A stretch of DNA of 64,000 nt from Sulfurospirillum arcachonense DSM 9755. Lineage in GTDB: Bacteria; Campylobacterota; Campylobacteria; Campylobacterales; Sulfurospirillaceae. The notes below the pieces were generated by a model. The model saw only the letters and a program-made list of their open reading frames with translations, was not told where the DNA came from and did not search any database. The stretch is from positions 62,001 to 126,000 of the forward strand of contig NZ_JFBL01000004.1 of assembly GCF_000597725.1 (NCBI RefSeq), read 5' to 3'. Position 1 is the first letter of the stretch. The number at the start of each line of letters is the position of its first letter. Below are positions 8,024 to 64,000 of the stretch, piece after piece. A program made the position numbers and the translations under genes.

Positions 8024-9277
8024 ATGAAAATATTGTTAATATACCACCAACACTTATATAAAAATGCATCAACAATTAGTGAACATGTAGAATCTTTCGA
8101 AAAATATATAAATCATAATGTATTGAAAACTAATACAGAATTAGGATTTCCAAAAAAATTATCCAATATAGAATTTGATGTTATTATTTTGCATTATTCA
8201 CTATTTGGCAGAGGGGCAATATATGAATTAAATGATAATTATGTTAATTATATAAAGAATTCAAAAGCTTATAAGGTTGCATTTTTTCAAGATGAGTATC
8301 ATTTTTGCCAAAAGAGGTTTTCATTTTTAAATGATTGTAAAATAGATAGTGTATATACACTGCTTGATCCAAAGTATTATGATGAGACTTATTATAAATA
8401 TACTAATGTAAAATCAGTTTATTTGACATTAACTGGATATGTAGATAAGAAGCATATTGATATAGGAAAATTTTTTTATAAACCATATAATGAAAGAACT
8501 ATAGATATAAGTTATAGAGCAAGAGAGTTGCCATATTATATGGGAAAAGAAGCACAAGAAAAAGTTGATATTGCAAAAGAGTTTATTAAAAGATTAGAAA
8601 AAAGAGATTTAAAAATAAATATTGATTATACAGAATCATCTAGACTTTATGGAGATGAATGGTACAAATTGATAGCAAATTCAAAAGTAGTTATTGGTGT
8701 AGAAGCAGGAGTATCAATATTTGATATAGATGGTAGGGCACAAGAAACTTATGAAAATTTTATAAAAAACAATCCAAAAGCTACAAAAGAAGAGATATTT
8801 AAAGTTTTAGAACCATGGGAAGGTAAAATGTACTATCGTACCATTAGTCCAAGAGTGTTCGAAGCTGCTTCTTTTAAGGTATTGCAAGTACTATTTGAAG
8901 GGGAATATCAAGGGATATTAAAACCAATGGTTCACTATATACCTCTTAAAAAAGATTTTTTAAATTTTGAGGAGGTATTAACAATGATAAAAGATGAAAC
9001 ATTAGTGAATAAAATCATAGATAATGCTTACAATGATTTGATACTATCAGGAAAATATTCATATCAAAGTTTTATAGAAGAGTTTGAAAAAACTTTACCT
9101 AGTGTTGAACAAAGTGTATGTGAGTATTCAAAAAATGAAATTTTATTGTTGATTAATAAAGATTTAAATTTTAGGTATCAACTAGCTAAATTGAAATCTT
9201 TTAGGTATAGGCAATTTATAGGAAGGAAATATCTTGTAAAAATAGTAAAATATGTATTAAAATTGGTAAGGAAATAA
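8024..9277 (+). CDS. Glycosyltransferase-like protein, paralogue of 14940-16157
   Basis: A 417-residue protein with a GT-B-like organisation. The C-terminal donor-binding region reads KVVIGVEAGVSIFDIDGRAQ and then TISPRVFEAASFKVLQVLFEGEYQGIL, followed by HYIPLKKDFLNFEEVL. This matches the family pattern in which a conserved S-x-R-x-F-E/D-A-A block precedes a proline- or lysine-rich D-F loop. The product of 14940-16157 has the same order (TIATEAGTYYL, SSRHFDAIGTKTSLLMLEGRYNDIL, HFIEIKKDYSN), so the two are paralogues and probably use related sugars. It is cytoplasmic or peripheral with no obvious membrane segment, and the final 30 residues are strongly basic, possibly for membrane contact. The donor is unknown. 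Confidence 0.65.
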   Translation: MKILLIYHQHLYKNASTISEHVESFEKYINHNVLKTNTELGFPKKLSNIEFDVIILHYSLFGRGAIYELNDNYVNYIKNSKAYKVAFFQDEYHFCQKRFSFLNDCKIDSVYTLLDPKYYDETYYKYTNVKSVYLTLTGYVDKKHIDIGKFFYKPYNERTIDISYRARELPYYMGKEAQEKVDIAKEFIKRLEKRDLKINIDYTESSRLYGDEWYKLIANSKVVIGVEAGVSIFDIDGRAQETYENFIKNNPKATKEEIFKVLEPWEGKMYYRTISPRVFEAASFKVLQVLFEGEYQGILKPMVHYIPLKKDFLNFEEVLTMIKDETLVNKIIDNAYNDLILSGKYSYQSFIEEFEKTLPSVEQSVCEYSKNEILLLINKDLNFRYQLAKLKSFRYRQFIGRKYLVKIVKYVLKLVRK

Positions 9278-9279
9278 CA

Positions 9280-10071
9280 ATGGAAGAAATATATAATGAA
9301 ACACGTGATTTTTGGAATACTAAACCATGTGGTTCATATATGTCAAGTTATAAAATATATTCTTATGAGTTTTTTCAAGATTTTGATACAAAATTTAGAC
9401 TTTTATATCCTTATTTTGATGAAATATTAGATGTTGAACAATACAGAGATAAAAAAGTGTTACTTATAGGCTTAGGAAGTGGTTATGAATTGGGACAAAT
9501 ATCACAAGTAACCAATAAGTTAGTTGCACTAGATCTTTCTAATGAAACAATTGAACTTGCAAATAAAAGAAAAGAAGTATTTAATTTAACTTTAAAAACA
9601 GTTTGTGCTTCTGCTACAGATATGCCTTTTGAAGATAATAGTTTTGATGCATTAGTTTCTATTGGTTGTTTACATCATATACCTGATATTGATTTGGTGG
9701 TAAATGAATTAAATAGAGTTTTAAAAAAAGGTGCTACATTAAATATAATGTTATATTATAAGTATTCTGTTAGAACATTATTTGGGATATACTTGAAGAG
9801 ATTATTTTTAAAAGAGTATAAAGGTTTAAACTATGAAGATTCTATTGCTACTGCGTATGATGGTGTGGGAAATCCTTACGCAAGACTTTACAGTAAAAAA
9901 GATGTAAAAAAAGTATTTAGGGGTTTCAAAGACTTTAGTTTTGAAATAGAAAATTTTGATAGCTCAGATTTACTACCTAGAATAGGTAGATTGCTTCCTC
10001 GTAATTTTTATTTGAAAACAATTGGAAAAATAATGGGATTAGATTTATATTTTAAAGCAATTAAAGAGTAA
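9280..10071 (+). CDS. Class I SAM-dependent methyltransferase
   Basis: A 263-residue methyltransferase. Motif I is KVLLIGLGSGYELGQIS near residues 63-79, motif II follows as LVALDLSNETIELANKR, and the later DMPFEDNSFDALVSIGCLHHIPD block matches the UbiE/Methyltransf_11 type. The Gly-rich loop reads GLGSGYE rather than the commoner GxGxG. It lies between a glycosyltransferase and an AsnB-like gene, separated by 2 and 9 bases, so it is probably co-expressed and may O- or N-methylate a sugar of the glycan. No membrane segments are visible. The precise target cannot be told from sequence. Confidence 0.8.
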   Translation: MEEIYNETRDFWNTKPCGSYMSSYKIYSYEFFQDFDTKFRLLYPYFDEILDVEQYRDKKVLLIGLGSGYELGQISQVTNKLVALDLSNETIELANKRKEVFNLTLKTVCASATDMPFEDNSFDALVSIGCLHHIPDIDLVVNELNRVLKKGATLNIMLYYKYSVRTLFGIYLKRLFLKEYKGLNYEDSIATAYDGVGNPYARLYSKKDVKKVFRGFKDFSFEIENFDSSDLLPRIGRLLPRNFYLKTIGKIMGLDLYFKAIKE

Positions 10072-10080
10072 AGGAATAGT

Positions 10081-11982
10081 ATGTGTGGAATAGTTGGAAT
10101 AGTTAATTTAAAAAGTCAAAAATATAAAAATTTGGAAAAACATCTTACTATAATGAATGAAATACAAGCTCATAGGGGACCTGATGGCGATGGGATTTGG
10201 GTAAATAGTCAAGAAACTATAGGTTTTGGACATAAAAGACTGAGTATTATAGATTTATCATCTGATGGGAAACAGCCTATGATAGATAAAGAATTATCTA
10301 TCACATTTAATGGTGAAATATATAATTATTTAGAATTAAAAGAAGAATTAAAAAATGATTATGATTTTAAAACGAACTCAGATACTGAAGTAATTTTAGC
10401 TTCTTATAGAAAATGGGGTAAAAAGTGTGTAAATCACTTTAGAGGGATGTTTGCTTTTGCAATTTGGGATGATAAAGAAAAAAAACTATTTTGTGCCAGA
10501 GATAGATTTGGAATAAAACCTTTTTATTATGCACAAATAGGAGATAACTTTTATTTTGCATCAGAAGCAAAATCACTATTACCTTTTTTTGAAAAGCTGG
10601 AAGTTGATAAAGAAGCATTAAAAGACTACTTGTATTTTCAATTTTATCTTGAGAATAAAACATTATTCAAAGGCATCAAGGAGCTGGGTGTAGCACATAC
10701 TCTAACAATAAAAAATAACAAAATAGATATAAAAAAATACTGGGAAGTTTATTATGATATAGATTTTGACCATTCAGCCTCTTATTTTGAGAAAAAATTA
10801 AAAGAGTTGATTGAAGAATCTGTGAAGTATCATGTAAGAAGTGATGTTCCTGTTGGAGCTTATGCAAGTGGTGGAGTAGATTCAAGTTTGATGGCTATTC
10901 TTGCTTCAAAAAGTGAAGAAAAAAAACTTCATGCATTTCATGGTAAGTTTTCTATTAGTAGTACATTTGATGAAAGTGTATATGCCCAAAGTATTTGTGA
11001 AGATAATAATATTAACTTATGTCAAATAGATATTAATAGTCAAGATTTTATTGATACTATACGAAAGATAACATATCATCTTGATAATCCAGTTGCTGGA
11101 CCTGGTTCATTTGCTCAATATATGACATCAAAACTTGCTTCACAAACTAGAAAAGTAGTTTTAGGTGGACAAGGTGGTGATGAGATATTTGGAGGATATA
11201 CGAGATATTTAGTTGCTTATTTTGAACAATGTATCAAAGGAGCAGTTGAAGGGACTTTAGATAATGGGAATTATGTAGTTACTTATGAATCAATTATTCC
11301 TAATTTGATCTCTTTAAAAAACTATAAACCGATGCTAAAACAGTTTTGGAGCGATGGATTGTTTGAAGAAATAGATAAAAGGTATTATAGTCTAATAAAT
11401 AGAGCACCAAATTTAGGTGATGAAATTTATTTGGATAAATTAGGTGACTATGATCCTTTTGAATCTTTTTCAAAATTATTTAATAGTGAAAATGTAGGTA
11501 AAGAATCTTATTTTGACAAGATGACTCACTTTGATTTTAAAACATTATTGCCTGCATTATTACAAGTTGAAGATAGAATGAGTATGGCTCATGGATTAGA
11601 AGCTAGAGTGCCTTTTTTAGACCATAAAATTGTTGAGTTTGCAGCAACTATTCCTGCAGATATAAAATTTAAAAACGGAACATTGAAAAAGTTGTTAGTA
11701 GAAAGTACAAAAGAATATTTACCAGAAAAGATTTTAAACAGAAAAGATAAGATGGGATTTCCTGTACCATTGAACCTATGGATGAAAGACGAATTAAAAG
11801 ATTTTATAATATCCATATTTGATAGTGGACCAGAGCGAGAGTTTTTTAATAAAGAGTTGATTAAAAATAGTGTACAATCCGAGGGACAATTCGGTAGAAA
11901 AGTTTGGGGATTTTTATCTTTAGAACTATGGTACCAAGAGTTTATTGATAAACATGAAGATTATAAAAATTTAATAAAATAG
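10081..11982 (+). CDS. AsnB-type glutamine-dependent amidotransferase (copy 2)
   Basis: A 633-residue two-domain enzyme: class II glutaminase starting MCGIVGIVNL (Cys2), then HRGPDGDG and GHKRLSIIDLS, and a synthetase domain with the pyrophosphatase loop SGGVDSS near residues 263-269. The late EDRMSMAHGLEARVPFLDH block is typical of AsnB. It has the standard length and no insertion, unlike copy 1. Position between a methyltransferase and paired epimerases suggests it amidates a uronic acid of the glycan (by analogy with WbpS-type proteins). A housekeeping asparagine synthetase cannot be excluded for one of the three copies. Confidence 0.85.
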   Translation: MCGIVGIVNLKSQKYKNLEKHLTIMNEIQAHRGPDGDGIWVNSQETIGFGHKRLSIIDLSSDGKQPMIDKELSITFNGEIYNYLELKEELKNDYDFKTNSDTEVILASYRKWGKKCVNHFRGMFAFAIWDDKEKKLFCARDRFGIKPFYYAQIGDNFYFASEAKSLLPFFEKLEVDKEALKDYLYFQFYLENKTLFKGIKELGVAHTLTIKNNKIDIKKYWEVYYDIDFDHSASYFEKKLKELIEESVKYHVRSDVPVGAYASGGVDSSLMAILASKSEEKKLHAFHGKFSISSTFDESVYAQSICEDNNINLCQIDINSQDFIDTIRKITYHLDNPVAGPGSFAQYMTSKLASQTRKVVLGGQGGDEIFGGYTRYLVAYFEQCIKGAVEGTLDNGNYVVTYESIIPNLISLKNYKPMLKQFWSDGLFEEIDKRYYSLINRAPNLGDEIYLDKLGDYDPFESFSKLFNSENVGKESYFDKMTHFDFKTLLPALLQVEDRMSMAHGLEARVPFLDHKIVEFAATIPADIKFKNGTLKKLLVESTKEYLPEKILNRKDKMGFPVPLNLWMKDELKDFIISIFDSGPEREFFNKELIKNSVQSEGQFGRKVWGFLSLELWYQEFIDKHEDYKNLIK

Positions 11983-56178: not shown

Positions 56179-56976
56179 ATGATACTCATAGCAGGACCTT
56201 GTGTAATAGAAAGTAGAGAAAAACTGTTTTCAGTGGCAAAACAGTTGATGAAATACCATGAAGATGCAAATATAGATTTTTATTTTAAATCGAGTTTTGA
56301 TAAAGCAAATAGAACAAGTATAGATAGTTTTAGAGGACCAGGAATCGATGAGGGATTAAAGCTTCTTGATGAGGTGAGAAGTGAGTTTGGATATAAGCTT
56401 TTAACTGATATTCATGAACCAAATCAAGCCAGACAAGTGGGTGAAGTAGTAGATGTACTTCAAATACCAGCTTTTTTATGTCGTCAAACTGATTTGTTAG
56501 TCGAAGCTGCTAAAACAAAAGCCGTAGTAAATATCAAAAAAGGGCAGTTTTTAAATCCAGCAGATATGAGATACTCTGTAAAAAAAGTTTTAGAAACTCG
56601 TGGCATAAAAGAAGAGGGCAAAGAAGTAGCTAGAGAAAATGGCGTTTGGTTGACTGAGCGTGGAAGTACTTTTGGCTATGGAAATTTAGTAGTAGATATG
56701 AGAAGTTTTATGATAATGAGTGAATTTGCTCCTGTAGTTTTTGATGCAACTCACTCTGTACAGATGCCAGGAATGGCTGGTGGAAGTAGTGGAGGAAAAA
56801 GAGAGTTTGTAGCTCCTTTAGCACGTGGGGCAGCTGCGATTGGGGTGGATGGATTTTTCTTTGAAACTCATGATAACCCTTGTGAAGCACTTTGTGATGG
56901 ACCAAATATGTTAAGCCCAGAAGATTTAAGTAAAACAATAGAAGATATTAAAAAAATACAAAATAGTTTAAAATAA
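56179..56976 (+). CDS. kdsA: 3-deoxy-8-phosphooctulonate synthase KdsA
   Basis: A 265-residue barrel enzyme condensing arabinose 5-phosphate and phosphoenolpyruvate to KDO 8-phosphate for lipopolysaccharide inner core. Motifs: [11 protein letters not shown] at the N-terminus, [67 protein letters not shown] and [19 protein letters not shown]. It stands last in the recognisable core region before the cas9 remnant. Its presence confirms an outer membrane with LPS/LOS. Confidence 0.95.
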
Positions 56977-57029: not shown

Positions 57030-57457
57030 ATGTCAAAAAAAATTCTCTCTCTCGATTTAGGAATCACTTCCCTAGGCTATAGTGTTTTAGATGAAAAAGA
57101 AAATGATAGATATTTACTTTTAGATTATGGTGTCAATATGTTTGATGCTCCGTATGATAAAGAAGGTAATTCAAAAAAGCTTTTACACTCTAAAAGTATC
57201 TCAACTTCAAATCTTTATAATTTAAGAAAAAAACGTAAAAAAGAGTTAGCCAAGCTTTTTGAAGATTTTAAATTAGGTAAAAACAGTAGCTAGTATAATC
57301 TATGAGATAGAAACACAAAAAAACACCTACATTTAGAAATCATGATAATTACAACTATATGATACGAAGAGAGTATATACAAGAAGAGATAGAAAAAATT
57401 GTAAAAGTTCAAAAATAGTTTGGGCTTTTTGAAAATGGTTTTGATGTATCAAAATAA
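57030..57457 (+). pseudogene. cas9: Decayed cas9 remnant (type II CRISPR nuclease)
   Basis: The first segment (57030-57293, 87 codons) starts with KILSLDLGITSLGYSVLDE, the RuvC-I motif of Cas9 with catalytic Asp9, and ends in LYNLRKKRKKELAKLF, the Arg-rich bridge helix. A stop then interrupts it. Downstream in another frame (57335-57415) is FRNHDNYNYMIRREYIQEEIEK and the next residues IVKVQK, a stop, then FGLFENGFDVS. This lines up with the segment of C. jejuni Cas9 that lies about 180 residues into the protein. So about 100 codons are missing between the two pieces, with a frame change and in-frame stops, and the HNH domain and the other RuvC motifs are gone. No cas1, cas2, repeat array or tracrRNA is visible nearby. 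The gene cannot make an active nuclease. Confidence 0.85.
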
Positions 57458-57606
57458 GAGTAAGTTGCGATTATATAGAGGTTTATTGTTGTTTTTTTAC
57501 TCTAAGTATTTTTTTATGATAAAAGTTTTTTTAATATTTAATTTATATTAAATATTTTTTAGTATAGAATTTCACTTTTATTTAAAGTGCGTAATAAATA
57601 AGCGGA

Positions 57607-57795
57607 TTATTTTTTTGTGATTTTGGTGTTTATATCGAAAGTAATTTTAATTGATTCTACTTTTTGTATGAGTTTATCTTTTGGGTAAGTTTCAAGTATT
57701 GTATATATTATTTTTCTATGGTCATTTGAGTTTTTCCAACCTATGATAGTTGTATATGGAATACCAATAATTTTGCTTAATTCTTTTACGTTCAA
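57607..57795 (-). CDS. Small HTH-like protein upstream of the T4SS operon
   Basis: A 62-residue protein on the minus strand, divergent from the virB operon. The stretch NVKELSKIIGIPYTTIIGWKNSNDHRKIIYTIL looks like a helix-turn-helix of XRE/bacteriophage-repressor type. The start is TTG 57795 with GGAG just upstream on that strand; a TTG at 57810 would add five residues without a site. It is divergent from the virB operon across the gap that carries the tandem operator-like repeats, so it is a candidate regulator of transfer. It is too short for a secure family call. Confidence 0.5.
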   Translation of the reverse strand: MNVKELSKIIGIPYTTIIGWKNSNDHRKIIYTILETYPKDKLIQKVESIKITFDINTKITKK

Positions 57796-57874
57796 TCTAA
57801 CTCCAGTCAAATAATTTTCAACATTATATCACGTTAACCTCGACTTAAATTTTTATAATATATACAATAATCGT

Positions 57875-57950
57875 ATTTTAAAATGTGTGATTTCTTTTGC
57901 ATATTTTAAAATGTGTGATTTCTTTTGCATATTTTAAAAAATGTGCAATA
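57875..57950. repeat. 28-bp tandem repeat with palindromic core upstream of virB2
   Basis: The unit ATTTTAAAATGTGTGATTTC plus TTTTGCAT (28 bases) occurs twice in direct tandem (57875-57902 and 57903-57930), followed by a partial third copy. At the unit junctions TTGCATATTTTAAAATGTG forms a near-perfect inverted repeat centred on TTTTAAAA. The third copy (57925-57948) is a longer version, TTGCAT...GTGCAA. This is the arrangement of multiple operators or iterons for one DNA-binding protein. It lies between the divergent HTH gene and virB2, 25 bases before the virB2 ribosome site. Confidence 0.75.
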
Positions 57951-57976
57951 CAAATTACATTTTAAGGGGAACGTAA

Positions 57977-58237
57977 ATGAAAAATTTACTTTTTATTTTA
58001 TTAGGTTTAGGACTTGTGTGTACAAGTTCTTTTGCAGAAGGTATTACTGTTGTAGATAAAGCTGCCGAATTATTAGACTCGAACATCCTGAGAGGTGCTA
58101 CAACTTTAGCTTTATTTGTGGTTGGATTTGTTTACTTATTTGGAAATATGGAGAAAGGAAAAGGATTAATGATTTCTGTAATTGTTGGATTGGCAATTCT
58201 TTCATCTGCTTCATGGATATCAGGTCAATTAAACTAA
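57977..58237 (+). CDS. virB2: VirB2/TrbC-like pilin subunit
   Basis: An 86-residue precursor with a cleavable signal (KNLLFILLGLGLVCTSSFA) and two membrane helices (LRGATTLALFVVGFVYLFG and GLMISVIVGLAILSSASWI), the pattern of the VirB2/TrbC major pilin of type IV secretion systems. The AAGGGGAA ribosome site is strong. It is the first gene of the operon, directly downstream of the tandem repeats. Pilin sequences are poorly conserved, so the call rests on topology and the following virB3-B4. Confidence 0.75.
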   Translation: MKNLLFILLGLGLVCTSSFAEGITVVDKAAELLDSNILRGATTLALFVVGFVYLFGNMEKGKGLMISVIVGLAILSSASWISGQLN

Positions 58238-58238
58238 A

Positions 58239-58484
58239 ATGTTTCACTCACCTAATATAAGAGAACTAACAAAAAAAGAAAAATATAAAGGGATTACAAG
58301 AACATCTTGGTCCTTTATTATTTTGATTGGTCTAGCTCTTTGGTCTTGGTTATTTATATTTGTAATTCCAATTATAGCAATACTATATATTTTCTTTTAT
58401 GTACTCGAATATTTTGATGATGATATTATGGAAATAATACAAATTTCTTTGAAAAATAGGAGTACAAATGAATTTTTTTCTTAA
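58239..58484 (+). CDS. virB3: VirB3-like inner-membrane protein
   Basis: An 81-residue protein with one or two adjacent membrane helices (SWSFIILIGLALWSWLFIFVIPIIAILYIFFYVLEYF) and an N-terminal region FHSPNIRELTKKEKYKGITRT, fitting VirB3, which sits with the VirB4 ATPase in the T4SS inner-membrane complex. It starts two bases after virB2 and overlaps virB4 by 17 bases, matching the usual B2-B3-B4 order. Confidence 0.75.
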   Translation: MFHSPNIRELTKKEKYKGITRTSWSFIILIGLALWSWLFIFVIPIIAILYIFFYVLEYFDDDIMEIIQISLKNRSTNEFFS

Positions 58485-60747
58485 CCTTTTATATAAAGAA
58501 AAAATCTTACACTCTTTAATAGAAGAGAACAATATCATAGGTAAATATGATAATTATAATCTTGTAACAAGAGATCAAAATCTTGTTACAATCTTTTCTA
58601 TTGATGGCGTAAGTTATTCGGCATTTACACAAGAGGAAAGATATAAGTTTTTAGATTTAAGAAATACATTTTTTAAATCTATTGATCCAATGATTTCTGT
58701 ATCAGTTTTTCAAAAAAGAAGTAAATTAAAAATAGGTGCAGACTCACAATTAAAAAATCCCCATGCACAAGAAATATTATCAGTTTGGGAACAAGAAGTT
58801 GAGGGATTCCAAACAAGCTACTACATAGCTTTTGTAACAAAAAACAAAATAATAGGAAACTTCCTAGAGTCTAAAAAACAAAATATGACTTCTTCAAGAG
58901 GTCAAGCAGGAAACTTGGGATTTTTCAAGAACACTTTAGATGATCTTGCAACAAGTTTCCAAGAAATTTTAAATGAATATGGAATAACTAGACTAAATGG
59001 AGATGAGGCATTATCCTTTTATGCTAGTTATTGCAATATGGAAGAAACAATAACAACAGCTAAGACTGGAATTTTACGTGATCATTATATAAGTTCTAAT
59101 TTGGAATTTAAAAAAGACTACATGATACATGACAACGGACAAAAAAAGTACTCAAGATTTATCAGTATCAAAGAATATGACACAAACGAGATAAATTCAA
59201 AACTTACTCATAGACTTTTAGGTGAGTCTATTGAACTTATGTTTTGTGAACAGATAAACAACCTGTCAAAAGAAAAAGCATTAAAAAAACTTGATTATAA
59301 AATCAATCATGCAGAAGAGATCGCTCTTGAAGAATTAATTAATATGAGAGAACTAGTAAAAACTGATCGTCAAACTTTGCTTTACTACTCTTTATCTATT
59401 CTTATCACTAGCGATAGTTTAGATCAGTTAAATATGAAGAGTGCAAAAGTAAAATCAATACTTTCTGAATATGGTTTAATTGGAACTATAGAAAATATAA
59501 ATATGAAACCTTTATATTTTTCTTTTTTTCCAGGAAGAGACAATCTTAATGCTAGAAAAAGAATACAAACAAGTGAGAATATAAGTGTACTTAACTACTT
59601 TGAAAAAGATCTAATAGGTTTTCAAAAAAACTCTTTTGGATCAGGAGCTATAACAGTATTTCAAACATTAAGTGAATCACCATATTATTTTAACTTTCAC
59701 AACAGTTCTAAAGATAATGCTTTAGGTCATACTTTACTTATTGCTGACTCTGAAAGTGGTAAAACTACCCTAATGTCATTTCTAATGACAAACTTACTTA
59801 AATACAATATTAATATTTTAGCTCTTGATAAACTAAACGGTATGCACAACTTTTGTAAATATGTAGGCGGTAATTATGCAGACATAAACGAAAGTTTTAA
59901 ACTAAATCCTTTTAGCTTGAGCTATAACGAAGAGAACAAAAACTTTTTAATTCTTCTACTAACGCAAATGGCAGGTATTAAATCAGAAGAATTTGAAGAA
60001 ACTCAAGCCATAGATGAAGCCATAGATGAAGTTTATCAACATATTGAGGGGAATAAAACATTTTCAGACTTCCTTGATTGTTTAGAAAGAGTTAATGAAT
60101 TAGAAAATAGATTTTTAAAATACAAAAATGGAATATTTGATAATGAAGAGTGTTTTTTATCTTTTGATAATCAATTAACTACTTTAAATATGGACGCTAT
60201 CTTAAAAGATGAAAAATTAGCAGCTTTGGTTAGTTTTTATACTTTCTACAAACTAAAGAAAATAAGTCAAGAAAAAGGAAAAGGATTTTTCTGTTTTAAT
60301 GATGAGTTAAAAGACTCAATAGACAATCAAGAAACAGCTCATGCAATTTTAGAGTATATTCTTGAAGCAAGAAAGGCTAACGGAATATTTACAGCAGGTG
60401 TTCAGAATTTAGATTTTTTTGATAGTTTAAATAACAAAGCAAGTTTTCTTGATAATATGGCTCATTTTATTATCTTTCCTACTAAATCGCAAACTTCACT
60501 AAACAAGTTTAAAACAGAACTTGGATTAAGTGATAGCGAAATAACTTTTTTAAAAACTACAAATCCATCTGATCATAAAGTTTTATTAAAAAATCAAAAA
60601 ACTAAAGAGGCAATCTTTTTAGATATTTCACTAAGTAGACTTGGAAAATACCTAAATGTTTTTGACTCTGGATCTAACAAAGTAGCAGAGATGAAAAGAT
60701 TAATAAAAAATAGCGAAAATTGGAGAGAGGAATATTTAAATGTCTAA
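58468..60747 (+). CDS. virB4: VirB4-type T4SS ATPase
   Basis: A 759-residue ATPase that powers pilus assembly and substrate passage. The N-terminal half is the CagE/VirB4 domain. The P-loop is IADSESGKTTLMSFL at about residues 424-438 (Ala replaces the first Gly; A-x4-G-K-T is allowed), followed by ALDKLNGMHNFCKYVGG. The Walker B region is GFFCFNDELKDS near 605-616 with N-D-E where most VirB4 have I-D-E. LEARKANGIFTAGVQNLDFF then matches the TraC/VirB4 motif with the Gln. The length is usual. It is the most diagnostic gene of the operon. Confidence 0.93.
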   Translation: MNFFLNLLYKEKILHSLIEENNIIGKYDNYNLVTRDQNLVTIFSIDGVSYSAFTQEERYKFLDLRNTFFKSIDPMISVSVFQKRSKLKIGADSQLKNPHAQEILSVWEQEVEGFQTSYYIAFVTKNKIIGNFLESKKQNMTSSRGQAGNLGFFKNTLDDLATSFQEILNEYGITRLNGDEALSFYASYCNMEETITTAKTGILRDHYISSNLEFKKDYMIHDNGQKKYSRFISIKEYDTNEINSKLTHRLLGESIELMFCEQINNLSKEKALKKLDYKINHAEEIALEELINMRELVKTDRQTLLYYSLSILITSDSLDQLNMKSAKVKSILSEYGLIGTIENINMKPLYFSFFPGRDNLNARKRIQTSENISVLNYFEKDLIGFQKNSFGSGAITVFQTLSESPYYFNFHNSSKDNALGHTLLIADSESGKTTLMSFLMTNLLKYNINILALDKLNGMHNFCKYVGGNYADINESFKLNPFSLSYNEENKNFLILLLTQMAGIKSEEFEETQAIDEAIDEVYQHIEGNKTFSDFLDCLERVNELENRFLKYKNGIFDNEECFLSFDNQLTTLNMDAILKDEKLAALVSFYTFYKLKKISQEKGKGFFCFNDELKDSIDNQETAHAILEYILEARKANGIFTAGVQNLDFFDSLNNKASFLDNMAHFIIFPTKSQTSLNKFKTELGLSDSEITFLKTTNPSDHKVLLKNQKTKEAIFLDISLSRLGKYLNVFDSGSNKVAEMKRLIKNSENWREEYLNV

Positions 60748-60766
60748 CTTATATAAAGGAGAAAAA

Positions 60767-60913
60767 ATGAAAAAGTTGTTATTAATAATTGGTCTTATAT
60801 ATGCGTTGATGTTGAGCGGATGTGCTGATAAAAACCCAACAAATCCTGCATATAAAAATTTTAAAAAATCACCTTGTGCTTGTATGGAGCAAGGAGAAAT
60901 GAAAAATGTTTGA
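60767..60913 (+). CDS. Small VirB7-like lipoprotein
   Basis: A 48-residue protein with a lipoprotein signal: KKLLLIIGLIYALMLSGC, the lipobox LSGC placing the lipid-bearing Cys at residue 18. The mature part has a second pair (CAC) near the C-terminus. VirB7 is a short lipoprotein that stabilises VirB9 in the outer-membrane core complex; position just before virB8 and the size match. An AAGGAG site precedes it, and it overlaps virB8 by eight bases. Confidence 0.7.
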   Translation: MKKLLLIIGLIYALMLSGCADKNPTNPAYKNFKKSPCACMEQGEMKNV

Positions 60914-61547
60914 ACAAGTTAAAGATGCAATTTCATTGTATCTTTTGGAAAAAAACCTTACCAACATGCTCTTTAAAATTAATATGGTTCAAAGTGCAAT
61001 TATTTTTATATTAGTTATTTGCATAATCTCACTTTTCCCGTTAAAAGAAAAAGAGCCTTATTTTGTGAACTTTTCAAATGCTGATATGAATTTTATACAA
61101 GTTAGAAAAGCTAATGAAGAAATGCAAAATGACATAGCAGTTCAAGAGTCTTTGGTAAATAGTTATGTTTACATGAGAGAAACGAAAAACAATATAGATG
61201 ATCGTTTCAGAACTGAAAGAGTTAGATTACAAAGTACCTTTGGAGTATGGAAAGATTTTGGAAAGATTTTCAAAAATGAAAATTCAATTTATCAAAATAA
61301 AGAAATTACTAGAGAAATTAAATTACTCAACACTTCTTTTATTCCTAACAACCCCATAGCTCAAATTGATTTTCAAGCAACAACAAAACGTAACGGTGAA
61401 ATAATCAAAGTCGGTGATTATCGTGTAGTAGTTCAATTTCACTTTAAAAATGAAAAAATGAAATTTGAAGATATGAAAATCAACCCAACAACTTTTAAAG
61501 TCAATTCATATTCTTTAAGTGAAATCAGGACAAAGGATTATAAATGA
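60906..61547 (+). CDS. virB8: VirB8-like inner-membrane T4SS protein
   Basis: A 213-residue protein with a short cytoplasmic N-terminus, one membrane helix (MVQSAIIFILVICIISLFPL, about 24-43) and a periplasmic domain of the NTF2-like VirB8 fold (NSYVYMRETKNNIDDRFRTERVRLQSTFGVW, AQIDFQATTKRNGEIIKVGDYRVVVQFHF). VirB8 nucleates the periplasmic part of the secretion channel. Its end overlaps virB9 by four bases (ATGA). Confidence 0.85.
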   Translation: MFEQVKDAISLYLLEKNLTNMLFKINMVQSAIIFILVICIISLFPLKEKEPYFVNFSNADMNFIQVRKANEEMQNDIAVQESLVNSYVYMRETKNNIDDRFRTERVRLQSTFGVWKDFGKIFKNENSIYQNKEITREIKLLNTSFIPNNPIAQIDFQATTKRNGEIIKVGDYRVVVQFHFKNEKMKFEDMKINPTTFKVNSYSLSEIRTKDYK

Positions 61548-62512
61548 AAAAACTTTTAATACTTTTACTTCTCCCTTTTTTGGTATTAGCTAATGATAGT
61601 GTTTTTGAAGATGAAGGAAATAATCAAGCTTCAAGCAACAATAATTTTAATCAATATATAGATCCAATGATAAATTTAGAAAATTTACAAGATTCATTTA
61701 TTTATAAAGATAAGACAAAAAGCAGCATTAAAGAAAATGGTAATTCCGACAATATTTTAAATATAAAATACAAAGAAAACAAGACGTACAGAATTAGAAC
61801 TCGTAATGCTATGGAAACTTTACTTATTTTACATAATGATAAAGTAGCTTTTGCACTTGTTGGTGACCCTAAAGGTTTTCAAATAAAGAACCTAGGTCTA
61901 GGAAAATATGATTTATCTAATATGGTAAAAATTAAACCATTAATGATAGGTGTTGATACGTCACTTACAATTATCGGTGAGAGTGGTAATATTTACTCTT
62001 TTTATCTTTTTTCTACAGATCATAAAAACGAAGACAACCCTCATTTAGTTGTATTTGTAAGTGAAGAGTTAGAGCATATTCAAAAGCTGCAAATCACTAA
62101 TCTTGAAAAAGAGGATTTTGAAAAAGCTAGAAAAGCTAAAAAAGCTCAAGAGCAGAAGCTAAAAGAGAATATAGAAAACAATCCTAACTTCATAACTGTT
62201 GGTGAGGGAATAGAAAAAATTTCTATAGATAAAAGATATATCACTAGAGATTTTACACAAACAGGAGCAGAAGAACTAAAAGCTTATGACATATTCAGAG
62301 ATAACAAATGGACTTATTTCAAATATGATAAGGACGATGCAAACAAAAAGTTTCCTGTAATATTTCGGGTAGTTGATGGATACGATAATCCAGTTAATAC
62401 TCGTGTAGTAGGTGATTATATAATGGCTGAAACGATAGCAGACAAATTTACTTTACGTATAGGTGATAAATACGTTTGTGTTAGAAAAAAAGGTAAGAGT
62501 GATGAAAAATAA
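61544..62512 (+). CDS. virB9: VirB9-like outer-membrane core-complex protein
   Basis: A 322-residue protein with a signal sequence (KKLLILLLLPFLVLAN) and an acidic, Asn-rich N-terminus. The C-terminal VirB9 domain shows DIFRDNKWTYFKYDKDDANKKFPVIFRVVDGYDNPVNTRVVGDYIM, the conserved strand pattern that binds VirB7. A coiled-coil Lys/Glu-rich linker lies at about residues 180-210. It overlaps virB10 by 11 bases. Confidence 0.85.
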   Translation: MKKLLILLLLPFLVLANDSVFEDEGNNQASSNNNFNQYIDPMINLENLQDSFIYKDKTKSSIKENGNSDNILNIKYKENKTYRIRTRNAMETLLILHNDKVAFALVGDPKGFQIKNLGLGKYDLSNMVKIKPLMIGVDTSLTIIGESGNIYSFYLFSTDHKNEDNPHLVVFVSEELEHIQKLQITNLEKEDFEKARKAKKAQEQKLKENIENNPNFITVGEGIEKISIDKRYITRDFTQTGAEELKAYDIFRDNKWTYFKYDKDDANKKFPVIFRVVDGYDNPVNTRVVGDYIMAETIADKFTLRIGDKYVCVRKKGKSDEK

Positions 62513-63635
62513 AAAATTACTCAATTTCTTTGTAATAATTTCCATTCCTCTTTTAATGATAGGTAGTTTATTTCTATATGCCTATCTTAGTCTAGATGAA
62601 GAAAATAAAATAAATAACTTTCAATCAGAGAATAACACTAAATTTCCAGTTGATGCTTATATGTTGCTACCTGAAAAAAAACATGCTCCCTATAAAGAAA
62701 AAAAAGTGGAGAAAAAAGAAGAGAAAAAAGACATAAAAATGAAAATTGATACCATACAAGAAGATCTTAATAAAAAAAAAGAAATTTTTGATCTTAACAT
62801 ATTTGAAAGTCAAGAAGAGATTAAAACAAAGGAGCTTGAGAAACAAAGAAAAATTATTTTAGCTTCAAGAATTCAACGAACAGATGAAAACATGCCACCT
62901 AAAAACTCTTTTATTAAACCTAAAAAAGAAAAAGATTTTGGAGATGGAAAATTCAGTAATTATTCAACTCAAGATAACTCTTCATATCAAACAAAACTTT
63001 ATAGAACTATAACAGCCGATAAGATGATACCAGCAATTTTAACTAACTCTATTCATTCTACTTTATCGGGTAAAGTTGTAGCTCAAATTGAAGAAGATAT
63101 TTATTCTTCTATGGGAGACACTCTTTTAATTCCTAAAGGCTCAAAAGCAATAGGCTTTTATAAAAATGATAACAAAATAGGGGAAAATCGTTTCATGTTA
63201 ATGTGGCAACGAATTTTAACACCTTTTGGACATAACATACTTCTAACTAAAGCTCAAAGTGCAGATATTTTAGGTAATAGTGGAATAGTAGGAGTAATGG
63301 ATGAGCGATATTGGGAAAGATACGGTTTACCTCTATCTCTTTCAACTCTTTCTAACTCTGTACTTCTTTTATTAAGCAATGCAACAGGAAATGGTAGCGA
63401 TGGAAACAACAACAATACTCAAGTGATACTCAATAATTCTAGGGAAGATATAGGATATATAATGCGTAAAATCATTGATGAACAAACCACGATTAACCCA
63501 CTTATAACCGTTGATTCAGGCAGTAGAATTTTTATTAATCCAACAGTAGATATTTGGTTTCCAAAGCCTAAAAATGGTGAAATATTAGCTAAATATTTCC
63601 ATGAAAAACAAATACCCAAAAAAGGAGCAGAATAA
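62502..63635 (+). CDS. virB10: VirB10-like T4SS core protein
   Basis: A 377-residue protein with one membrane helix near the N-terminus (LLNFFVIISIPLLMIGSLFLYAYL), a Lys/Glu-rich (rather than the usual Pro-rich) linker over residues 60-140, and the TrbI/VirB10 beta-barrel domain: ITADKMIPAILTNSIHSTLSGKVVAQIEEDIYSSMGDTLLIPKGSKAIGFY, then RILTPFGHNILL and DERYWERYGLPL. It spans both membranes and transmits VirB4 energy to the outer-membrane pore. I start at ATG 62502; upstream in-frame codons overlap virB9 further. A run of nine A lies in the linker at about 62772. Confidence 0.88.
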   Translation: MKNKKLLNFFVIISIPLLMIGSLFLYAYLSLDEENKINNFQSENNTKFPVDAYMLLPEKKHAPYKEKKVEKKEEKKDIKMKIDTIQEDLNKKKEIFDLNIFESQEEIKTKELEKQRKIILASRIQRTDENMPPKNSFIKPKKEKDFGDGKFSNYSTQDNSSYQTKLYRTITADKMIPAILTNSIHSTLSGKVVAQIEEDIYSSMGDTLLIPKGSKAIGFYKNDNKIGENRFMLMWQRILTPFGHNILLTKAQSADILGNSGIVGVMDERYWERYGLPLSLSTLSNSVLLLLSNATGNGSDGNNNNTQVILNNSREDIGYIMRKIIDEQTTINPLITVDSGSRIFINPTVDIWFPKPKNGEILAKYFHEKQIPKKGAE

Positions 63636-64000
63636 ATGAAAAAATTAGTTTTACTATTAATCATTTTGATTACATTAGTTAATGCACAAGAGCAAGAAGC
63701 TAAAAAAGAGAGTGATAGTTTAAATGTCAAAACAGAACAAGACATTTTTTTTAAAAATGGTTTTGGTACAATTTATGCAAAACCTATGCTAAAAGATAAA
63801 CAATTACAAGAAAACATTAAACTTCAAGGTGAGTATAATGTTGAAAAAAACAAAAATGCAGTTATAAAATTTAATAAACTCCAATATAAAGGAAAGCTTT
63901 ATGACTTAAGCAATCCTTTTTCAAAAAAAGGTAGATTGAAAAAGCGTGACATAGTAATGAAAAAAGATAGTAATATCTTAGTTACTGGCGGTGATAAACA
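63636..64000 (+). CDS. Exported protein of the T4SS operon (3' end outside window)
   Basis: The visible 121 residues start with a signal sequence (KKLVLLLIILITLVNA) and continue with a charged body (EQEAKKESDSLNVKTEQDIFFKNGFG), then repeated KxL strands. It starts at ATG 63636, behind AAGGAG, one base after virB10. The order suggests a further core or pilus-associated component such as a VirB5-like or system-specific protein, but no family is recognisable from this part. Confidence 0.6.
   Translation, partial: MKKLVLLLIILITLVNAQEQEAKKESDSLNVKTEQDIFFKNGFGTIYAKPMLKDKQLQENIKLQGEYNVEKNKNAVIKFNKLQYKGKLYDLSNPFSKKGRLKKRDIVMKKDSNILVTGGDK

What the first reader, a model, noticed from the sequence alone, without database searches (positions are those of the whole stretch)
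57030..57457. Fossil of a type II CRISPR system: a truncated, frameshifted cas9 next to kdsA
The RuvC-I motif with Asp9 and the bridge helix are intact in the first 87 codons, then a second Cas9-like segment appears in another frame with stops, leaving about 100 codons missing between them. There is no array, cas1 or cas2. So the host lost CRISPR at the place where a conjugation-type secretion operon now begins 500 bases on. Loss of CRISPR may have allowed the element to enter, or insertion may have destroyed it.
Basis: partly seen in the sequence, partly recalled or inferred. Interest (0 to 1): 0.62.

Follow-up and report, generated by a model that had tools for sequence, protein, structure and literature searches.

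The report
Broken cas9 left beside a T4SS insert
A bacterium of the Campylobacter order once carried a CRISPR-Cas9 immune locus next to kdsA; only a broken stub of cas9 and probably the last CRISPR repeat remain, with a plasmid-type secretion operon now lying between them, an unusually clear but basically ordinary gene fossil.

Summary
The stub is a true Cas9 remnant of one type II-C clade: codons 1-85 (57030-57284), a gap of about 97 codons, then codons 182-240 (57280-57454) in other frames with a frameshift in an A-run and an in-frame TAG; the remaining ~890 codons are gone. Intact relatives (65-77% identical over the first piece) have cas1, cas2, a tracrRNA-like anti-repeat and arrays in several genomes. 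The window's genome (99.99% complete) has no Cas1 and no intact repeats. Five relatives run kdsA-ribH directly and a sixth kdsA-rssA-ribH, so everything from 56977 to 73559 is inserted. Beyond the window, at the far edge of that insert (73532-73554), a degenerate repeat, GTTTTAATACC-TTACAAAATAGC, lies on the cas9 strand. It is the best match in 121 kb, and of 8 exact GTTTTAATACC copies in the genome the only one that extends. So the T4SS block most likely sits inside the former CRISPR-Cas locus. The T4SS is collinear with an Aliarcobacter butzleri plasmid; no plasmid of 72,556 holds a Cas9 of this clade. Which came first, decay or insertion, cannot be told. Degenerate cas9 loci are well known in this order.

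The parts
56179..56976 (+). kdsA, intact left neighbour; the insert starts directly after its stop codon
   Evidence: 82-89% identical orthologues in relatives, where kdsA is followed by ribH (five genomes) or rssA then ribH (one)
57030..57284 (+). cas9 remnant, piece A: codons 1-85 with start, RuvC-I Asp9 and bridge helix
   Evidence: TIGR01865 E 5.4e-10; 65-77% aa identity to intact Cas9 of relatives; 33 of 33 clade-invariant columns kept
57280..57321 (+). cas9 remnant, piece B: codons about 182-195 (KTVASIIYEIETQK), other frame, after loss of about 97 codons
   Evidence: tblastn with several relatives; 12/14 identical to L024, 9/14 to L020
57317..57454 (+). cas9 remnant, piece C: codons about 195-240 in a third frame after a frameshift in an A-run, one in-frame TAG; homology then ends
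   Evidence: tblastn E 1e-14 to 1e-18 with seven relatives; 22 of 22 clade-invariant columns kept
57455..57976 (.). stretch between cas9 remnant and virB2; holds a 67-aa ORF on the minus strand (57607-57810, no Pfam match) and a 28-nt unit twice in tandem (57874-57929)
   Evidence: no Cas9, Cas1 or Cas2 match; no Pfam family; direct repeat
57977..64000 (+). T4SS operon: virB2 57977, virB3 58239, virB4 58468, virB7-like 60740, virB8 60906, virB9 61544, virB10 62463, 742-aa gene from 63636; continues beyond the window to window coordinate 71711 (virB11, mobC, virD4, virB6), then zeta-like toxin genes to 73463, repeat remnant 73532-73554, rssA 73560
   Evidence: Pfam; collinear 35-52% identity with A. 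butzleri plasmid AB-1119-LD; downstream contig read

Best explanation
An ordinary type II-C CRISPR-Cas locus (cas9-cas1-cas2-tracrRNA-array) once lay between kdsA and rssA. It is now dead: cas9 has lost codons 86-181 and everything after about 240, is frameshifted and has a stop, and cas1, cas2, tracrRNA and array are gone except for what is probably the distal terminal repeat. A 16-kb block with a pVir/Aliarcobacter-plasmid-type T4SS and a zeta-type toxin module now fills the space between the cas9 stub and that repeat, so it entered the locus or replaced its middle. The stub makes no working nuclease: at best an 87-residue RuvC-I/bridge-helix peptide. Shown: Cas9 identity, lesions, insert borders, absence of Cas1 and intact repeats of this clade. 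Inferred: that the array once lay here (from one degenerate repeat), and that the T4SS came as a separate event.
For: Cas9 profile hits and alignment with intact relatives. Relatives carry cas9-cas1-cas2-tracrRNA-array with repeat GTTTTAATACCCC.... Five relatives run kdsA-ribH with nothing between, and the sixth kdsA-rssA-ribH with 2 nt between the kdsA and rssA ORFs, so cas9 stub and T4SS are both inserted. At 73532-73554, on the cas9 strand and 5 nt before rssA, lies a repeat remnant matching 21 of 24 columns of the L025 repeat: best score in 121 kb (31 against 26), and of 8 exact GTTTTAATACC copies in the genome the only one that extends (31 against at most 24). Terminal repeats in L026 and L132 also degenerate in their 3' third. 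No Cas1, no exact repeat core. The T4SS is collinear with a plasmid that has no annotated cas9; no plasmid or viral contig searched encodes this Cas9.
Against: The repeat remnant is one 23-nt match noticed after the fact: 13 of 120 simulated contigs hold a score of 31 or more somewhere, so its weight rests on its place and strand. A 10-nt direct repeat (TACAAAATAG at 56957 and 73544) overlaps it and could instead be an integration scar. No sister strain of the species was available, and no related genome examined has a cas locus at this site.
Confidence: 0.76

Rival explanations
1. cas9 arrived as cargo of the T4SS element (as in CampyICE1, where an orphan type II-C cas9 precedes the conjugation genes) and decayed after integration next to kdsA.
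For: cas9 and T4SS are in the same insert, same strand, about 520 nt apart. CampyICE1 is a precedent in this order, with inactivated cas9 copies (PMC8743540).
Against: The closest T4SS carriers (A. butzleri plasmid; two copies in other genomes, L135 and L136) have other genes before virB2 and no cas9 there. No plasmid of 72,556 encodes this Cas9. Relatives of this Cas9 sit in cas9-cas1-cas2-array loci with varied neighbours. The repeat remnant lies at the far border, not beside cas9.
Confidence: 0.17
2. The T4SS block integrated site-specifically at the kdsA 3' end, leaving a 10-nt att-like repeat; the cas9 stub is unrelated debris.
For: TACAAAATAG at 56957-56966 and 73544-73553.
Against: No integrase gene was recognised in the insert; a 10-nt match between two AT-rich stretches of 100 and 160 nt is expected by chance at roughly 0.07 (own estimate); it would leave cas9 inside the element, which is the previous rival.
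Confidence: 0.05
3. The 87-residue Cas9 N-terminus is kept as a small protein with a new role.
For: Start codon and 85 codons are open and all 33 clade-invariant positions are kept; an Aliarcobacter MAG (L022) also keeps only a 5' part of cas9.
Against: Piece C, which cannot be translated together with piece A, also keeps 22 of 22 invariant positions, so retention can simply reflect youth of the lesions. A RuvC-I plus bridge-helix piece has no independent function known to me.
Confidence: 0.02

Closest known systems
Type II-C CRISPR-Cas (cas9-cas1-cas2-tracrRNA-array) of Campylobacterales
   Same: Cas9 remnant clusters with Cas9s of Sulfurimonas, Sulfurovum and Aliarcobacter records and of G042/G043/G090/G196; repeat remnant fits that clade's repeat
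   Different: nothing functional is left: no full cas9, no cas1, cas2, tracrRNA or array
CampyICE1 degenerated type II-C system and the orphan cas9 of C. coli (both described in PMC8743540)
   Same: cas9 without cas1/cas2 near conjugation genes; inactivated copies exist
   Different: T4SS here is pVir-like, the block is 16 kb without recognised integrase or relaxase, and CRISPR-Cas remnants bracket the T4SS; CampyICE1 is 70-129 kb with integrase and XerC genes
Aliarcobacter butzleri plasmid AB-1119-LD / C. jejuni pVir T4SS
   Same: virB2-virB3-virB4...virB7-virB8-virB9-virB10-742-aa gene-virB11-mobC-virD4 in the same order, 35-52% identity
   Different: chromosomal; virB6 lies at the end of the operon instead of after virB4; the plasmid gene upstream of virB2 (8625-10832) and ParB have no counterpart in the insert

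Membership tests
Cas9 (type II CRISPR nuclease) | RuvC-I motif with catalytic Asp and Arg-rich bridge helix | tested here: met
   piece A, TIGR01865 E 5.4e-10, alignment
Cas9 (type II CRISPR nuclease) | HNH domain and RuvC-II/III | tested here: not met
   no homology to any relative's Cas9 after codon 240; no other Cas9 in the genome. A RuvC_III family search was uninformative because its control did not ring
[quoted passage not shown]
   no Cas1 in genome, control positive; no Cas1/Cas2 piece in the insert
[quoted passage not shown]
   no array in window; no exact TTTAATACCCCT in genome, 25 one-mismatch sites against 27 for the reversed pattern; one degenerate repeat at 73532. Arrays with unrelated repeats elsewhere were not searched for
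CampyICE1-like element | integrase and XerC at the end, conserved 70-129 kb layout with a cas9 block | tested here: not met
   insert is 16.6 kb, no integrase matched; T4SS is VirB-type (layout from PMC8743540)
pVir/AB-1119-LD-type T4SS | collinear virB2-virD4 cluster | tested here: met
self-transmissible conjugative element | relaxase and oriT, integrase or replication genes | tested here: inconclusive
   no relaxase, integrase or ParB among the insert ORFs tested with Pfam; the rest of the genome was not searched for a relaxase in trans

The most novel reading that the evidence does not exclude
A conjugation-type element entered the CRISPR-Cas locus itself, destroying the immune system that could have excluded it, and the remnants of cas9 and of the terminal repeat mark both edges: a direct physical record of an invader replacing the immune locus.
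Probability: 0.3. Interest if true: 0.5.

Novelty: new member of a known kind. Interest (0 to 1): 0.3.

Why it matters
Loss of CRISPR-Cas and gain of mobile elements are usually linked only by statistics across genomes. Here the two lie nested at one site, with remnants on both sides, so strains of this species could show which came first. Otherwise it is one more decayed cas9 in an order where such decay is documented.

Tried and rejected
RuvC_III family search of the genome gave nothing, but the control also failed, so it proves nothing. Rfam on the window: no match. Spacers of L019, L025 and L026 against window, insert and plasmid: only chance-length matches. The 97 nt before rssA against phages and plasmids: no meaningful match, so no readable last spacer. 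The tandem 28-mer at 57874-57929 was considered as an array and rejected: no spacer between copies, no likeness to the clade's repeat. G273 was considered as another decayed cas9 and set aside because the gene runs into a contig end. Cas9 of this clade on plasmids or viral contigs: none. Naming the species was not possible; the order Campylobacterales follows from the relatives.

Full report
What is there. The 87-codon ORF at 57030-57293 is the start of a Cas9: NCBIfam TIGR01865 E = 5.4e-10, four PADLOC Cas9 models at 2.6e-5 to 1.7e-4, and solved Cas9s as best PDB hits. The genome search gives the same place as its only significant Cas9 match. Intact Cas9s of about 1,110-1,170 aa from Sulfurimonas and Aliarcobacter records and unnamed relatives (G042, G043, G090, G196) match the first piece at 65-77% identity.

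Lesions. Aligned to those relatives, the window holds codons 1-85 (57030-57284), then codons 182-195 in a second frame (57280-57321, KTVASIIYEIETQK), then codons 195-240 in a third frame (57317-57454), with the shift in a run of A and one in-frame TAG. About 97 codons are missing in the middle and about 890 at the end. The kept pieces match all 33 and 22 columns that are invariant in seven relatives, so the gene was probably under constraint until fairly recently. A tree of 143 usable columns puts the stub with the clade of those relatives, with moderate support.

Site. In G004, G005, G041, G042 and G043 kdsA is followed directly by ribH-nusB-pyrF; in G003 by a convergent patatin-like gene (rssA) and then ribH. 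In the window's genome kdsA ends at 56976, and rssA-ribH-nusB-pyrF resume at window coordinate 73560. Everything between, 16.6 kb, is inserted: the cas9 stub, a small ORF on the minus strand, a T4SS operon from 57977 to 71711, and a zeta-type toxin module to 73463.

The T4SS. Gene by gene it follows A. butzleri plasmid AB-1119-LD (35-52% identity over the well-matched genes), a 27.5-kb plasmid of a kind whose likeness to C. jejuni pVir is published (PMC3896396), except that virB6 lies at the end. VirB4 of this kind is in no other of 44 family genomes, and at E <= 1e-150 in 5 of 399 of the order, its own included. No relaxase, integrase or partition gene was recognised in the insert.

The other end of the CRISPR locus. 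The relatives' repeats are 36 nt, GTTTTAATACCCCTA(C/T)AA.... Five nt before the rssA end, on the cas9 strand, the insert ends in GTTTTAATACC-TTACAAAATAGC (73532-73554), matching 21 of 24 columns of the L025 repeat. It is the best local match in 121 kb of contig (31 against 26). Of 8 exact GTTTTAATACC copies in the genome it is the only one that extends (31 against at most 24). Terminal repeats in L026 and L132 likewise keep the first two thirds and lose the last. By chance a score of 31 or more occurs somewhere in 13 of 120 simulated contigs; at this place and strand it would be about 1 in 1,000 or rarer (own estimate, post hoc). The simplest reading is that the CRISPR-Cas locus spanned kdsA to rssA and the T4SS block sits within it.

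Absence of the rest. No Cas1 in the genome (working control), no clade-type repeat core, no Cas1/Cas2/Fic piece in the insert. Other CRISPR types without Cas1 and arrays with unrelated repeats were not excluded.

Order of events. Not decidable. The internal deletion, frameshift and stop show ordinary decay; the loss of the cas9 3' part through the array could be one replacement with the T4SS or an earlier deletion. The cargo rival has a precedent in CampyICE1, an element with an orphan type II-C cas9 and inactivated copies (PMC8743540), but no T4SS relative seen here carries this cas9.

Verdict. Observation confirmed; fossil reading right and strengthened; causal story open. Low-to-moderate interest.

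Noticed in passing
L020 7001-10390 (Aliarcobacter MAG JAGOIF010000056.1): An open 1,129-aa Cas9 with Asn in place of the RuvC-I Asp (SINLGITS), with no cas1/cas2 beside it, a tracrRNA-like anti-repeat and a single degenerate repeat downstream: possibly a natural nickase orphan or an early decay stage. Its G196 relative (75% identical) keeps Asp and has cas1-cas2 and a long array.
   Followed up: partly
L022 7995-8546 (Aliarcobacter MAG JAQVLW010000025.1): Same locus as L020 (99.88% over 7,476 nt) but cas9 breaks off at codon 157 into unrelated DNA; no Cas1 in that genome. Either a second truncated cas9 or a chimeric MAG contig.
   Followed up: partly
L019 11533-12288, L021 11365-12156, L134 (reverse) 8992-9354: A Fic-family gene (PF02661 in L019 and L021; a shorter ORF in L134, not tested with Pfam) lies between cas9 and cas1 in three related genomes.
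   Followed up: partly
L099 (genome of L020): The only Cas1 match in the genome of the orphan Cas9 lies in a 744-aa open frame on another contig, much longer than a plain Cas1; perhaps a fusion.
   Followed up: no
57874-57929: A 28-nt unit (TATTTTAAAATGTGTGATTTCTTTTGCA) twice in tandem just upstream of virB2; may be an operator of the T4SS operon.
   Followed up: no
57607-57810 (minus strand): 67-aa ORF resembling a small helix-turn-helix protein between the cas9 stub and virB2; no Pfam match.
   Followed up: no
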